Of a DNA stretch of 35,123 bases, positions 30,323 to 35,123 are shown in pieces (position 1 is the stretch's first letter; each line of letters starts with the position of its first letter). Source of the DNA: an uncultured Elusimicrobiales bacterium (GTDB taxonomy: Bacteria; Elusimicrobiota; Elusimicrobia; Elusimicrobiales; Elusimicrobiaceae); contig CALUUY010000010.1 of the NCBI GenBank assembly GCA_944324095.1, forward strand, positions 1 to 35,123. The letters run 5' to 3'. The notes under the pieces were generated by a model. It saw only the letters and a list, made by a program, of their open reading frames with translations, was not told the DNA's origin and did no database searches. The translations under genes were made by a program, and so were the position numbers.

Positions 30323-30350
30323 TTGACTTACGCTTTTATATTGGTATAAT
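30323..30350 (+). promoter_or_regulatory. Near-consensus promoter of ndk
   Basis: TTGACT (30323-30328) and TATAAT (30345-30350) are 16 bases apart, and TGG directly precedes TATAAT. Transcription should begin about 30357-30359, on or just before the ndk ATG at 30359. Confidence 0.75.
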
Positions 30351-30358
30351 GTTTAAAT

Positions 30359-30817
30359 ATGAGATATATGGAACGCACACTGGTACTTATTAAACCTGAT
30401 GCTATTGAAAAACGCATCAGCGGTCTCATTTTAGACCGGCTTGATCACCTCGGCCTGCAAATGACCGGGGCAAAAGTGGTTTCTTTAACCGAAGAGTTAG
30501 CCCGGGCCCATTACAAAAACCTGGAAGGCAAACCCTTTTTGGAAGAAGTCATTCAGTATATGATGGGTGAATTTAACAACGTTCCCAATCATAAAATTTA
30601 CGCCTTCGTTTTCCAGGGTGAAAACGCCATTGCCAAAGTGCGCCAAGAAATTGGCAGCACCAACCCGGAAAAAGCCGCCCCGTGGACAATCCGCGGCAGC
30701 TTTGGGCGCTTCATCGGGGATGTTATGCAGAACTGTGTGCACGCTTCCGGCTCACCGGAAGATGCCGAAAAGGAAATTGCACTGTGGTTTAAACCCGAAG
30801 AGGTTTTGGACAGATAG
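30359..30817 (+). CDS. ndk: Nucleoside diphosphate kinase
   Basis: 152 residues. MERTLVLIKPDA at the start, the PWTIRGSFG loop and NCVHASGSPEDAEKEI with the phosphorylated histidine at H128 identify it. It passes phosphate from ATP to other nucleoside diphosphates. Two starts are possible, ATG at 30359 or 30368, and the second would begin MERTLVLIKPD as in most homologs. Neither has a Shine-Dalgarno sequence, and the promoter position implies a leaderless or near-leaderless mRNA. One base separates its stop from the next start. Confidence 0.94.
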   Translation: MRYMERTLVLIKPDAIEKRISGLILDRLDHLGLQMTGAKVVSLTEELARAHYKNLEGKPFLEEVIQYMMGEFNNVPNHKIYAFVFQGENAIAKVRQEIGSTNPEKAAPWTIRGSFGRFIGDVMQNCVHASGSPEDAEKEIALWFKPEEVLDR

Positions 30818-30818
30818 A

Positions 30819-31685
30819 ATGAAAGTGTATGCTTTGTTATTGGCGGGGGCCTTGGCGTTATGGGGGTCCCTGCCGTTATCTGCCCAGGGTATTGAGGGCC
30901 AAGCCGTTACGTTAAACACGTCGGACGGGTGGGCCCTTTCTGCGGTGTATAAAGCGCCTAAGGACAATGGCCCTGTGGTCATTCTTTTGCCTGATTTGGG
31001 AAAAGACAAAACCGCTTTTACCAAGTTTTCCGCTTCGTTAGCTCGAGCGGGGTACGGGTACGTGGCGTTGGACTTGCGCGGCCACGGGCAAAGTATTAAT
31101 CAGGGAGAATATACTACTTTTGCCCGGGAAGGTTTAGATAACGAATTTAATAAAATGCCCCGCGATGTGGACGCAGCCGTTTCTTTTTTGCAAAAAAAAG
31201 GAGTGTCGGCCCAAGATATCGTGCTGCTGGGTTGCGGGCTGGGCGCCAATGTGGCGGCTAAAAGCGTCACGTTTACGCCGGAGATTGGCTCTTTGGGTTT
31301 AATCAGCCCCACGGCCAATACGCGCGATGTGTTGGCTATACCAGCTATGCGTCTGTATCAGGGCAATGTGCTTATTGCTGCGTCGGCCGATGACAAAAAA
31401 ACTTTTTTGGAAGCCAGCGTAATACGCAATGTGGCGTATTTGACGGCGGAGAATGCCGGCAAGGAAGGAACCATAACGTTTTTGACGGCGTATGATTTGT
31501 CCTCGCACGAAATGCTGGATAAATATTTAATTCCGTCTGTATTGCAGTGGCTGGCTGTGCCTGCCCGGCCGGAAATAAAGCCGGATATCGTACCGGAAAC
31601 CGAAACGGAAGTGGCCGCGCCCGGTGTATTGGTGGTGGGCCCGTCCGACACAGAAGAAGCCTTGATTCCGTCTGTATTGGAGTAA
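30819..31685 (+). CDS. Exported alpha/beta-hydrolase-fold protein, nucleophile apparently lost
   Basis: The ATG at 30819 gives 288 residues with a clear signal peptide (cut near A22, LPLSAQG). A frame open upstream to 30567 is only the shadow of ndk. The fold is seen from VVILLPDLGKDKTAF, YVALDLRGHGQS and VLLGCGLGANVA. The last is the nucleophile elbow, normally GxSxG, here G138-C-G140-L-G142, with glycine where the serine belongs. A later aspartate and histidine (H in DLSSHEML) exist. The C-terminus is proline- and valine-rich and probably disordered. Either a non-catalytic binding protein or an enzyme using another residue. It directly follows ndk and precedes the GH3-like gene by 10 bases. 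Confidence 0.8.
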   Translation: MKVYALLLAGALALWGSLPLSAQGIEGQAVTLNTSDGWALSAVYKAPKDNGPVVILLPDLGKDKTAFTKFSASLARAGYGYVALDLRGHGQSINQGEYTTFAREGLDNEFNKMPRDVDAAVSFLQKKGVSAQDIVLLGCGLGANVAAKSVTFTPEIGSLGLISPTANTRDVLAIPAMRLYQGNVLIAASADDKKTFLEASVIRNVAYLTAENAGKEGTITFLTAYDLSSHEMLDKYLIPSVLQWLAVPARPEIKPDIVPETETEVAAPGVLVVGPSDTEEALIPSVLE

Positions 31686-31695
31686 TGGAGAAGAT

Positions 31696-32640
31696 ATGAA
31701 AGTCGCCCGGATTGTTTTCCCTGGTTTTTGGTTTGGAGAGAGCGATTTGTCCACCGCTAAACAATTGGCGCATATGGGCGTGGGCGGCTTTTGCGTTTAC
31801 GGCGGCACGGCAGAGCAAACGGCGGATTTCGCCCGCCAAATGCGGGAGGCTTCCCCTTACAATTACTTGCTTATTTGCGCCGATATCAACGAAGATTTAA
31901 CAGAAATAATTCCTGACGCCCCGGCCTTGCCGTCTAATGCGTCTTTAGGGGCGTGCTCTTCGGCGGAGGGGGCTTATAAAAAAGGGCACGTATTAGCTTT
32001 GCAGGCGCGCAGCTTGGGGATAGACTGGCTGCTTGGCCCGGTGGTGGACTTGGGGTATGCGTCACCGTCTTTTAGTGAGTCGCCTTCCTGTGTTACCCGC
32101 TTGGCGGGTGATTTTGTGGCCGGGCTTTCCAATGGGGGGGCGCTAAACTGCATTAAGTATTTCCCCGGGATAAGCGGCGCGTTGAAAACGCTGGCCCAGA
32201 TGGAAGATGCGGAATTTATGCCTTATAAAAGTTTATTCCGCCGGGCGGACGCGATTATGCCTTCTGATATGACGTTCCCCAATATTGATGGGGAAAACCA
32301 GGCGATGCTGTCGGACAAAATTCTGCGCGGTTTATTAAAAAAACGCCTCAATTATAAAGGTTGCATACATAGCTTTCCGCTTTGGAAAGCCTATGTGCGC
32401 TATGAAGCGGCGGCAGCTTTAAAAATGCTGCACTGCGGTGTAGAAAATATTTTGGCACCGGCAGATCCGTTTGCGGTGATAGAAGCCATTGAAAAAGAAG
32501 TAAACAAAGGGTTTTTGGTGGATGAAATTATTCATTCCGTTTCCAATCACGAAATGGCCGTCAGCAAAATTATTTCTGCCCCGGTTATGAATACCAAAGA
32601 AGCGTTTGCGCTAGCTAAAGATTTTTGCAATAAAAAATAA
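31696..32640 (+). CDS. GH3 (NagZ-like) barrel protein, catalytic residues apparently lost
   Basis: 314 residues without a signal peptide. Similarity to beta-N-acetylhexosaminidases of glycoside hydrolase family 3 is seen over the whole length: GVGGFCVYGG, WLLGPVVDLG, IKYFPGISG (NagZ KHFPGHG), RADAIMPSDMTFPNID and LLKKRLNYKGCIHSFPLW. NagZ has SDDLSM at the last position with the aspartate nucleophile. Here the residue is F227, and the Asp-His dyad of the KHFPGHGxxxxDSH loop is also missing. NagZ recycles peptidoglycan muropeptides. This protein may bind such ligands without cleaving. GGAGAAG precedes the ATG. A terminator follows. Confidence 0.78.
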   Translation: MKVARIVFPGFWFGESDLSTAKQLAHMGVGGFCVYGGTAEQTADFARQMREASPYNYLLICADINEDLTEIIPDAPALPSNASLGACSSAEGAYKKGHVLALQARSLGIDWLLGPVVDLGYASPSFSESPSCVTRLAGDFVAGLSNGGALNCIKYFPGISGALKTLAQMEDAEFMPYKSLFRRADAIMPSDMTFPNIDGENQAMLSDKILRGLLKKRLNYKGCIHSFPLWKAYVRYEAAAALKMLHCGVENILAPADPFAVIEAIEKEVNKGFLVDEIIHSVSNHEMAVSKIISAPVMNTKEAFALAKDFCNKK

Positions 32641-32663: not shown

Positions 32664-32687
32664 ACCCCGCCTAGTGCGGGGTTTTTT
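32664..32687 (+). terminator. Intrinsic terminator after the ndk operon
   Basis: ACCCCGC-CTAGT-GCGGGGT followed by TTTTT. Confidence 0.9.
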
Positions 32688-33424: not shown

Positions 33425-34816
33425 ATGCCCAATCCGTCCGCGCCGCGTCAAGCCGGCCAAAACCAAGCACCCGAAGTAAGAAAGCACAATTTCGACGAAG
33501 TAACCAAAACCTTCACCAAAGAAGAAGCCCTGGCTGAGGCCGAGCGCTGCCTGCACTGCCAAAATGCCCGCTGTCAGGCCAATTGCCCGGTGGGGGTACA
33601 AATCCCGGCGTTTATCGCTTTGTTAAAAGAAGGCAAAGTGGGAGAGGCCGCCAGCAAGATTATGGAAACCAGCTTACTGCCTGCCATTTGCGGCCGCGTC
33701 TGCCCGCAGGAAAAACATTGTGAGGGTAACTGCGTATTAAAAGCCAAGTTTGGTTCTGTAAATATTGGTATGTTGGAGCGGTACGTGGCGGATACAGCCC
33801 GCAAAGAAGGCTTGTTAAAAGCCCCACAAACGGCTGCACCTACCGGTAAGAAAGTGGTGTGTGTGGGGTCTGGCCCGTCTTCTATTGCGTGTGCGGCGGA
33901 GTTGAAACGTTTAGGGCACGATGTTACCGTATTGGAAGCTTTACACGATTACGGCGGTGTGCTTAGATACGGAATTCCTTCTTTCCGCTTGCCGCGCGAA
34001 GTGATTAACCACGAAATTGAAACCGTTAAAGCGATGGGTGTACAGTTTAAGACGGACGTTTTAGCCGGTGTTACCATACCGGTGGAAGAATTACGCAAAG
34101 AATACGATGCCGTTTACATCGGCAGCGGCGCGGGCCTTCCCACAATGACCGGCGTTCCCGGAGAAAACGGTGTAGGCGTATATAGCGCCAACGAATTTTT
34201 AACCCGCATCAATTTAATGCAGGCTTATAAATTCCCGCAAACGGATACCCCCATTACGGTAGGTAAACACGTGGTGGTGTTGGGTGCCGGAAACAGCGCG
34301 ATGGACGCCGCCCGCTGCGCTATGCGTTTAGGGCCGCAGAGCGTAACCATTGCCTACCGCCGCAGCGCTGCTGAAATGCCCGCCCGCGCGGCTGAAGTGG
34401 AACATGCACAGGAAGAAGGCGTAAAATTTGAATTTTTGGTAACTCCCAAAGAAATCCTGCAGGATGAAAAAGGCCGTGTAACCGGCGTGCGCTTTACACG
34501 CAACCAACTGGGTGAGCCGGATGAAAAAGGCCGCCGCCGGCCGGTGGAAATACCGGGTTCTGATTTTGTGATGGAAGTGGAAACGGTGATTGTGGCCATC
34601 GGCCAGAAACCCAACCCCATTTTGCCCAAACACACCCCCGGTTTAAAAACCACGGAACGCGGTGTTTTGGAATTGGATGAAAACGGCTCTACCTCTTTAC
34701 CCGGTGTATATGCGGGTGGGGATATTATCCGCGGCGGGGCCACGGTGCTTTTGGCCATGAAAGACGGTCTGCAGGCCGCACACCGTATAGACAACTATTT
34801 AAAAGGGGAGAAATAA
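33425..34816 (+). CDS. nfnB: NADH-dependent ferredoxin:NADP+ oxidoreductase, large subunit (GltD-like)
   Basis: 463 residues. The N-terminal iron-sulfur domain has CLHCQNARCQANCP and CGRVCPQEKHCEGNC, as in GltD-type flavoproteins. VVCVGSGPSSIACAAELKRL is the FAD-binding fold, VVVLGAGNSAMDAARCAMRL binds the second nucleotide, and GDIIRGGATVLLAMKDG is the flavin end motif. The small subunit of glutamate synthase is similar, but the next gene encodes an NfnA-type protein, which decides for Nfn. Nfn couples reduced ferredoxin plus NADH to reduction of two NADP+ by flavin-based electron bifurcation. The stop codon is one base from the nfnA start. Confidence 0.9.
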   Translation: MPNPSAPRQAGQNQAPEVRKHNFDEVTKTFTKEEALAEAERCLHCQNARCQANCPVGVQIPAFIALLKEGKVGEAASKIMETSLLPAICGRVCPQEKHCEGNCVLKAKFGSVNIGMLERYVADTARKEGLLKAPQTAAPTGKKVVCVGSGPSSIACAAELKRLGHDVTVLEALHDYGGVLRYGIPSFRLPREVINHEIETVKAMGVQFKTDVLAGVTIPVEELRKEYDAVYIGSGAGLPTMTGVPGENGVGVYSANEFLTRINLMQAYKFPQTDTPITVGKHVVVLGAGNSAMDAARCAMRLGPQSVTIAYRRSAAEMPARAAEVEHAQEEGVKFEFLVTPKEILQDEKGRVTGVRFTRNQLGEPDEKGRRRPVEIPGSDFVMEVETVIVAIGQKPNPILPKHTPGLKTTERGVLELDENGSTSLPGVYAGGDIIRGGATVLLAMKDGLQAAHRIDNYLKGEK

Positions 34817-34817
34817 T

Positions 34818-35123
34818 ATGGAAGAAAATACCATTTTAGTAAAAGAGGATTTGAGCGACGTCGTTTCCAAATTTGTTATTTATAAACCCTTGGTGGCCCA
34901 AACCGCCAAAGCCGGGCAGTTTGTTATTTTGCGCGGTTGCGAAGGGGGGGAACGCATTCCCGTAACCCTGGTGGATTGGGACGCCAAAGCCGGCACCATT
35001 ACCGTAATTATCCAGGCCATAGGCAAATCCACGGTAATGTTTAACTCTTTTAAACAGGGCGATAAATTTGCCAATGTGGCCGGCCCCTTAGGTACCCCGG
35101 TGGAAATAAAAAATTACGGCACG
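34818..35123 (+). CDS. nfnA: NfnA-type small subunit of ferredoxin:NADP+ oxidoreductase (3' end outside window)
   Basis: The frame runs open for 102 codons to the window end. The product begins with an FAD-binding barrel like dihydroorotate dehydrogenase electron-transfer and SudB proteins. KAGQFVILRG and the flavin-contact segment ERIPVTLVDWD are visible, then AIGKSTVMFNSFKQGD and GPLGTPVE. The full protein (about 280 residues in the family) should also hold NAD(H)- and [2Fe-2S]-binding parts. Ribosome-binding site GGGGAG. Together with nfnB it makes the bifurcating complex. Confidence 0.88.
   Translation, partial: MEENTILVKEDLSDVVSKFVIYKPLVAQTAKAGQFVILRGCEGGERIPVTLVDWDAKAGTITVIIQAIGKSTVMFNSFKQGDKFANVAGPLGTPVEIKNYGT

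What the first reader, a model, noticed from the sequence alone, without database searches (positions are those of the whole stretch)
30359..32640. Two adjacent apparent pseudoenzymes in the ndk operon
One transcript holds ndk, an exported hydrolase-fold protein and a cytoplasmic GH3-fold protein, the latter two both with replaced catalytic residues. Two independent losses side by side suggest a shared non-catalytic function, for example envelope sensing. This is the best candidate for an undescribed system in the window.
Basis: inference. Interest (0 to 1): 0.5.

Follow-up and report, generated by a model that had tools for sequence, protein, structure and literature searches.

The report
Dead-enzyme pair from cell-wall recycling operon
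Next to a housekeeping gene, a genus of gut bacteria keeps two enzyme-like proteins that have lost catalytic parts; both trace back to cell-wall recycling genes and both are still held by selection, so they probably bind or regulate something rather than cut it.

Summary
A tight unit (ndk, an exported alpha/beta-hydrolase-fold protein "psi-Hyd", a cytoplasmic GH3/NagZ-like protein "psi-NagZ") lies between promoter-like and terminator-like sites. Psi-Hyd has Gly at the nucleophile serine. Psi-NagZ lacks the nucleophile Asp, a pocket Arg and the HGxTxxDSH loop.

The organism is an Elusimicrobiaceae bacterium (genus including Ca. Avelusimicrobium). Psi-NagZ is in 66 of 66 genomes of the genus, directly after psi-Hyd in all 65 other loci, and was not seen in sister genera. 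It is under purifying selection and is usually more conserved than the intact NagZ of the same species.

The new fact is the context. In most sister-genus loci the operon is ndk, psi-Hyd, murQ, anmK, nagZ; in 26 of 28 sampled loci, nearly all from other families, psi-Hyd is followed by murQ. In the window's genome murQ-anmK-nagZ sits elsewhere, behind an ampG-like gene, and psi-NagZ takes its place.

The two losses differ in age: psi-Hyd's serine went once, deep in the class; psi-NagZ is genus-specific. Best reading: a NagZ-derived binding or regulatory pseudoenzyme of peptidoglycan recycling beside an old exported pseudo-hydrolase of that operon. Function is inferred, not shown.

The parts
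30323..30350 (+). sigma-70-like promoter site TTGACT-16-TATAAT upstream of ndk
   Evidence: 11 of 12 matches; a consensus match only
30359..30817 (+). ndk, nucleoside diphosphate kinase; catalytic His in NCVHAS kept (motif recalled); likelier start 30368
30819..31685 (+). psi-Hyd: exported alpha/beta-hydrolase-fold protein, nucleophile Ser replaced by Gly140, His230 kept, conserved C-terminal motif EALIPSVL
31696..32640 (+). psi-NagZ: NagZ-derived GH3 TIM-barrel domain without nucleophile, catalytic loop or C-terminal domain
32664..32682 (+). intrinsic-terminator-like hairpin with T-run after psi-NagZ

Best explanation
The locus is a rebuilt peptidoglycan-recycling operon. The ancestral operon was ndk, psi-Hyd, murQ, anmK, nagZ. 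psi-Hyd, an exported alpha/beta-hydrolase-fold protein, had lost its catalytic serine early in the class and was kept beside murQ. In the window's genus the working module murQ-anmK-nagZ lies elsewhere (in the window's genome behind an ampG-like permease gene), and a NagZ copy that lost its nucleophile, catalytic loop and C-terminal domain stands next to psi-Hyd. Shown: fold, lost residues, genus-wide retention, purifying selection, gene order in relatives. Inferred: psi-NagZ is a cytoplasmic non-catalytic ligand-binding or regulatory protein of muropeptide recycling (it keeps the pocket residues D62 and K160 and has refixed others), most likely sensing a recycling intermediate or holding a recycling enzyme; psi-Hyd is a periplasmic binding protein serving the same pathway.
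For: Gene order: in 16 of 23 family loci outside the genus murQ stands between psi-Hyd and anmK-nagZ; murQ follows psi-Hyd in 26 of 28 further sampled loci, ndk is beside it in 24 of 28. The intact module in the window's genome is ampG-like, murQ, anmK, nagZ. psi-NagZ is in 66 of 66 genomes of the genus, next to psi-Hyd in 65 of 65. Selection: median dN/dS 0.13 over 266 psi-NagZ pairs, 0.235 over 276 psi-Hyd pairs; over the same barrel columns psi-NagZ is more conserved than NagZ in 61 of 78 species pairs, mean 68.4% against 61.9%. One clade, 100/100, stem 1.23. Of NagZ-conserved positions, 7 of 31 on the catalytic face are refixed to another residue against 2 of 43 elsewhere. Fold: pLDDT 84.7; nearest PDB chains are GH3 N-acetylglucosaminidases.
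Against: No ligand, partner or phenotype is known. The catalytic face of psi-NagZ is on average not more conserved than the rest (3918 of 10000 shifts as low), weak support for a kept binding pocket; 14 of 31 NagZ-conserved face positions vary or are otherwise changed. The stretch around the lost catalytic loop is predicted with low confidence. The two proteins seem to be in different compartments. Adjacency may be plain inheritance of a neighbourhood: lpxB and relA are often conserved there too. Three family loci have anmK-nagZ but no murQ after psi-Hyd, and four have neither anmK nor nagZ in the stretch held.
Confidence: 0.42

Rival explanations
1. Two unrelated neighbours: psi-NagZ and psi-Hyd have separate functions, in the cytoplasm and the periplasm, and stay together only because the neighbourhood is inherited.
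For: psi-Hyd occurs in the rest of the class where psi-NagZ was not seen; the losses differ in age; flanking lpxB and relA are often conserved; compartments differ.
Against: ndk is gone from the spot in 9 loci and the downstream genes vary, yet psi-Hyd and psi-NagZ are not parted in 65 of 65 loci.
Confidence: 0.3
2. psi-NagZ or psi-Hyd catalyses something without the classical nucleophile: a changed enzyme rather than a dead one.
For: psi-Hyd of this genus keeps an invariant His230 (38 of 38 rows) although g2 and g5 lost it; in the f13-f15 clade the nucleophile column holds D or E in 11 of 12 rows, as in Asp-nucleophile alpha/beta-hydrolases (recalled). psi-NagZ has newly fixed residues on the catalytic face.
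Against: psi-NagZ lost nucleophile, catalytic loop and pocket Arg together. In f1, f2 and f9 the nucleophile column of psi-Hyd is G, V, A, L, I, N, R or W, not a constrained catalytic residue.
Confidence: 0.17
3. psi-NagZ is a scaffold that binds intact NagZ, AnmK or MurQ and needs no small ligand.
For: 64 of 66 genomes have a second match, full-length NagZ where listed; the two without it are 83% complete. The strands and the loops before them are more conserved than the catalytic face.
Against: No contact predicted or tested.
Confidence: 0.2
4. psi-NagZ is a decaying pseudogene.
For: It has lost a domain and its catalytic residues.
Against: Frame without stops in 66 of 66 genomes (one cut by a contig end), dN/dS 0.057-0.080 against three close species, nine derived residues fixed.
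Confidence: 0.02

Closest known systems
NagZ, GH3 beta-N-acetylglucosaminidase of peptidoglycan recycling
   Same: TIM-barrel fold, ancestry within the Elusimicrobiaceae NagZ; pocket residues D62 and K160 kept.
   Different: No nucleophile Asp, no HGxTxxDSH loop, pocket Arg lost, no C-terminal domain, stands beside psi-Hyd and not beside anmK.
Glucokinase regulatory protein (GKRP), a MurQ-type fold turned sugar-phosphate-sensing regulator (recalled; the Pfam names show the kinship of MurQ and GKRP)
   Same: Works like: a recycling-enzyme fold used as a non-catalytic sensor, if the best explanation is right.
   Different: Other fold and lineage; no regulatory function shown here.
Alpha/beta-hydrolase-fold esterases (PF12146, PF00561) and non-catalytic receptors of that fold such as GID1 (recalled)
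   Same: Fold; a paralogue lineage with GASIGAN-type motif, Asp and GHG exists in the same class.
   Different: Catalytic Ser absent in 45 of 45 rows of the clade; no ligand known.
AmpR/NagZ muropeptide-sensing circuit of gammaproteobacteria (recalled)
   Same: Would couple muropeptide pools to a response.
   Different: The three-gene unit holds no transcription regulator; no regulation shown.

Membership tests
GH3 / NagZ (active beta-N-acetylglucosaminidase) | GH3 N-terminal TIM-barrel domain | tested here: met
   Pfam PF00933 2.4e-30, 106.5 bits over 27; AlphaFold model and PDB GH3 matches
GH3 / NagZ (active beta-N-acetylglucosaminidase) | catalytic nucleophile Asp | tested here: not met
   F 45, A 18, other or gap 3 of 66; D in 37 of 37 full-length NagZ
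GH3 / NagZ (active beta-N-acetylglucosaminidase) | KHFPGHGxTxxDSH motif with the catalytic His | tested here: not met
   KYFPG kept, the HGxTxxDSH columns are gaps in 66 of 66
GH3 / NagZ (active beta-N-acetylglucosaminidase) | NCBIfam NagZ equivalog cut-off (207 bits) | tested here: not met
   63.8 bits; a weak criterion, as the intact NagZ of the same genome scores 177
alpha/beta hydrolase (catalytic) | fold and Pfam family | tested here: met
   PF12146 42.8 bits over 27; model and PDB matches
alpha/beta hydrolase (catalytic) | nucleophile in GxSxG | tested here: not met
   G in the window and in 17 of 17 other f1 rows on the tree; non-Ser in 45 of 45 rows of the clade; D or E in 11 of 12 f13-f15 rows leaves another nucleophile open there
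alpha/beta hydrolase (catalytic) | catalytic His | tested here: met
   H230 invariant in 38 of 38 rows of the genus; lost in g2 and g5
peptidoglycan-recycling operon | linkage with murQ, anmK or nagZ | tested here: met
   met for psi-Hyd outside the genus; in the window's genome the working module is elsewhere
muropeptide sensor | binds a muropeptide or amino sugar and changes a response | not testable with these tools
   needs bench work

The most novel reading that the evidence does not exclude
A two-compartment peptidoglycan-recycling relay without catalysis: an exported pseudo-hydrolase kept through the class beside murQ reports on envelope turnover in the periplasm, and in one genus a NagZ-derived pseudoenzyme reads the imported muropeptide in the cytoplasm and tunes NagZ, AnmK, MurQ or Ndk.
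Probability: 0.13. Interest if true: 0.78.

Novelty: new variant of a known kind. Interest (0 to 1): 0.52.

Why it matters
Pseudoenzymes derived from cell-wall recycling enzymes would be a new way for bacteria to read their own wall turnover. The case is testable: the pair is genus-wide, the ancestral gene order is still present in sister genera, and intact homologues of both proteins exist for side-by-side binding assays. The ndk, psi-Hyd, murQ cluster seen across the class also gives a first functional lead for an exported alpha/beta-hydrolase-fold family that annotation would call an esterase.

Tried and rejected
Pseudogene decay: rejected by frames without stops in 66 of 66 genomes and low dN/dS. 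Chance or assembly error: rejected by 66 species and by 38 loci from named public contigs, many of them the same contigs as the G genomes.

C-terminal motif of psi-Hyd as a general sorting signal: not supported. A back-translated pattern gave 27 hits in 26 of 66 genomes, 26 of them in psi-Hyd and one elsewhere (G038:C49); it missed psi-Hyd of 40 genomes, which carry variants. Of 65 psi-Hyd proteins a script pattern matched 53; of the 12 others, 11 end in a close variant by eye and one (L125) does not.

Stronger conservation of the psi-NagZ catalytic face: not found. Origin of psi-NagZ from the genus's own NagZ: not rejected (AU p 0.222) and not shown; its stem joins an unresolved fork.

Literature: no held paper had both Elusimicrobi and peptidoglycan recycling, both NagZ and pseudoenzyme, or the three terms. 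The listings (15 of 20 shown; 10 of 34 shown) held nothing on these proteins by title and start of abstract. Only passages of PMC13046382 were read: in Caulobacter, alleles for inactive NagZ act like the deletion, a different case.

Limits: dN/dS pairs outside dS 0.2-1.5 were dropped and only 6 NagZ pairs were left; some psi-Hyd frames there carried an N-terminal overhang into ndk. The first conservation count, 72 of 78 with whole NagZ, was replaced by the fairer barrel-only count, 61 of 78. Trees used 23 of 66 psi-NagZ rows and 16 of 88 f1 psi-Hyd loci plus the window. The 28 loci come from 39 genomes that I picked; 6 of 36 matches and 3 of 33 gave no locus and were not looked at. One partial psi-Hyd (L213) was left out of alignment A2.

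Full report
What is there. The window lies in an 88.75% complete genome of 1.58 Mb. Named relatives that carry psi-NagZ are Elusimicrobiaceae, among them Candidatus Avelusimicrobium excrementipullorum and Elusimicrobia bacterium UBA1436. At 30359-32640 three genes run on the + strand: ndk, psi-Hyd (30819-31685) and psi-NagZ (31696-32640), with 1- and 10-base gaps. A promoter-like site ends 8 bases before the listed ndk start, and a terminator-like hairpin follows psi-NagZ.

psi-NagZ. It matches the GH3 N-terminal domain (2.4e-30) and is predicted as a GH3 barrel (pLDDT 84.7, pTM 0.87; nearest PDB chain 3sqm; profile search 3sql 5.7e-27). The same genome holds a full-length NagZ 41% identical to it and two further GH3 proteins. 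In an alignment of 66 psi-NagZ and 37 NagZ proteins, D62 is kept in 65 of 66, K160 in 66 of 66, R130 is P in 59, H161 is Y in 65, the HGxTxxDSH columns are gaps in 66, and the nucleophile D244 is F in 45 and A in 18. All 37 NagZ keep D62, R130, K160, H161, D171, H173 and D244. The roles of these residues are recalled from the NagZ literature.

Spread. With E up to 1e-20, 160 of 235 genomes of the class have a match to psi-NagZ. In the window's genus the short form is found in 66 of 66 genomes (one cut by a contig end). A second match is present in 64 of 66; where listed it is a full-length NagZ or cut by a contig end; the two without it are 83% complete. Of 24 other genomes of the family, 20 have one match and 4 none; the 18 matches that were listed lie in frames of 468 aa or more. 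psi-NagZ is one clade (100/100; 23 of 66 rows used) with a stem of 1.23 changes per column, inside the Elusimicrobiaceae NagZ. Grouping it with the genus's own NagZ is not rejected (p 0.222).

Selection. Nei-Gojobori estimates give a median dN/dS of 0.13 (psi-NagZ, 266 pairs), 0.235 (psi-Hyd, 276), 0.082 (ndk, 525) and 0.142 (NagZ, 6) for pairs with dS 0.2-1.5. Against three close species psi-NagZ shows 0.057-0.080 and NagZ 0.142-0.154. Over the same barrel columns psi-NagZ is more conserved than NagZ in 61 of 78 species pairs, mean 68.4% against 61.9%. Nine positions carry one residue in at least 34 of 37 NagZ and another in at least 63 of 66 psi-NagZ. Of NagZ-conserved positions, 7 of 31 on the catalytic face and 2 of 43 elsewhere are refixed in this way. 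Against my reading: the face as a whole is not more conserved than the rest (3918 of 10000 shifts as low).

psi-Hyd. It has an alpha/beta-hydrolase fold (the model is moderate, pLDDT 72.6) and a Sec-type signal by eye. The GxSxG serine is Gly in the window and in every f1 sequence whose motif was covered. In the sister family f2 the position is V, A, L, I, N, R or W; in the f13-f15 clade it is D or E in 11 of 12 rows. A second lineage in the class keeps a GASIGAN-type motif, Asp and GHG. A tree of 77 rows with the nucleophile columns left out separates Ser from non-Ser with one change (99/88); the nearest Ser row, L234 of family f12, also stands before murQ and anmK. So the serine was most likely lost once, in a murQ-linked ancestor; the tree is midpoint-rooted, so the direction rests on Ser being the rule in this fold.

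Gene order. In the genus, psi-Hyd and psi-NagZ are adjacent on one strand in 65 of 65 fetched loci; ndk was found in 52 of 65, and 4 of the 13 without it are cut by contig ends. In 23 loci of sister genera, 19 carry anmK and nagZ after psi-Hyd, and 16 of these have murQ between; L134, L142 and L144 do not (several of these MurQ matches lie below the family's cut-off). In L133, one of the other four, a partial murQ match at the contig end follows psi-Hyd. In 28 further loci (27 from other families, one from G081 of this family) murQ follows psi-Hyd in 26 and ndk is beside it in 24; the two without murQ are L270, which goes straight to anmK, and L274. In the window's genome the intact module is an AmpG-like permease (TIGR00901, 162 bits, below its cut-off of 350), murQ, anmK, nagZ on contig C7.

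Reading. But the two losses differ in age, and the common link is peptidoglycan recycling. I commit to psi-NagZ as a non-catalytic regulator or sensor of that pathway (0.42 for the whole account), with functional independence of the two proteins the main rival (0.3). Nothing in the held papers that I listed describes either protein (listings and abstract starts only).

Noticed in passing
window 30359-30817: The Ndk protein is about 100% identical (rounded) to that of six congeners compared although dS is 0.36-1.07, while other species of the genus have an Ndk 59-83% identical at the same spot: several ndk types, perhaps exchanged between species.
   Followed up: partly
L104, L108, L111, L112, L119, L121, L125, L127, L129: ndk was not found between gfo/lpxB and psi-Hyd in these loci of the genus although the contigs continue.
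   Followed up: partly
window 31653-31685 and psi-Hyd of the genus: A conserved C-terminal motif (E-A-L-V/I-P-S-V-L) after a variable acidic linker; one exact-pattern hit outside psi-Hyd in 66 genomes. Some g5 proteins end in PSVL too.
   Followed up: partly
L245, L259, L263: The Ser-bearing alpha/beta-hydrolase paralogue of the class lies before a NagZ-like gene in these three loci.
   Followed up: no
window 33425-35123: A glutamate-synthase-small-subunit-like gene followed by a ferredoxin-NADP-reductase-like gene, the usual look of NfnAB (recalled, not tested).
   Followed up: no
L006/L007 (own genome C6:3325-4679): Two tandem alpha/beta-hydrolase paralogues with Ser in a GYSLG motif.
   Followed up: no
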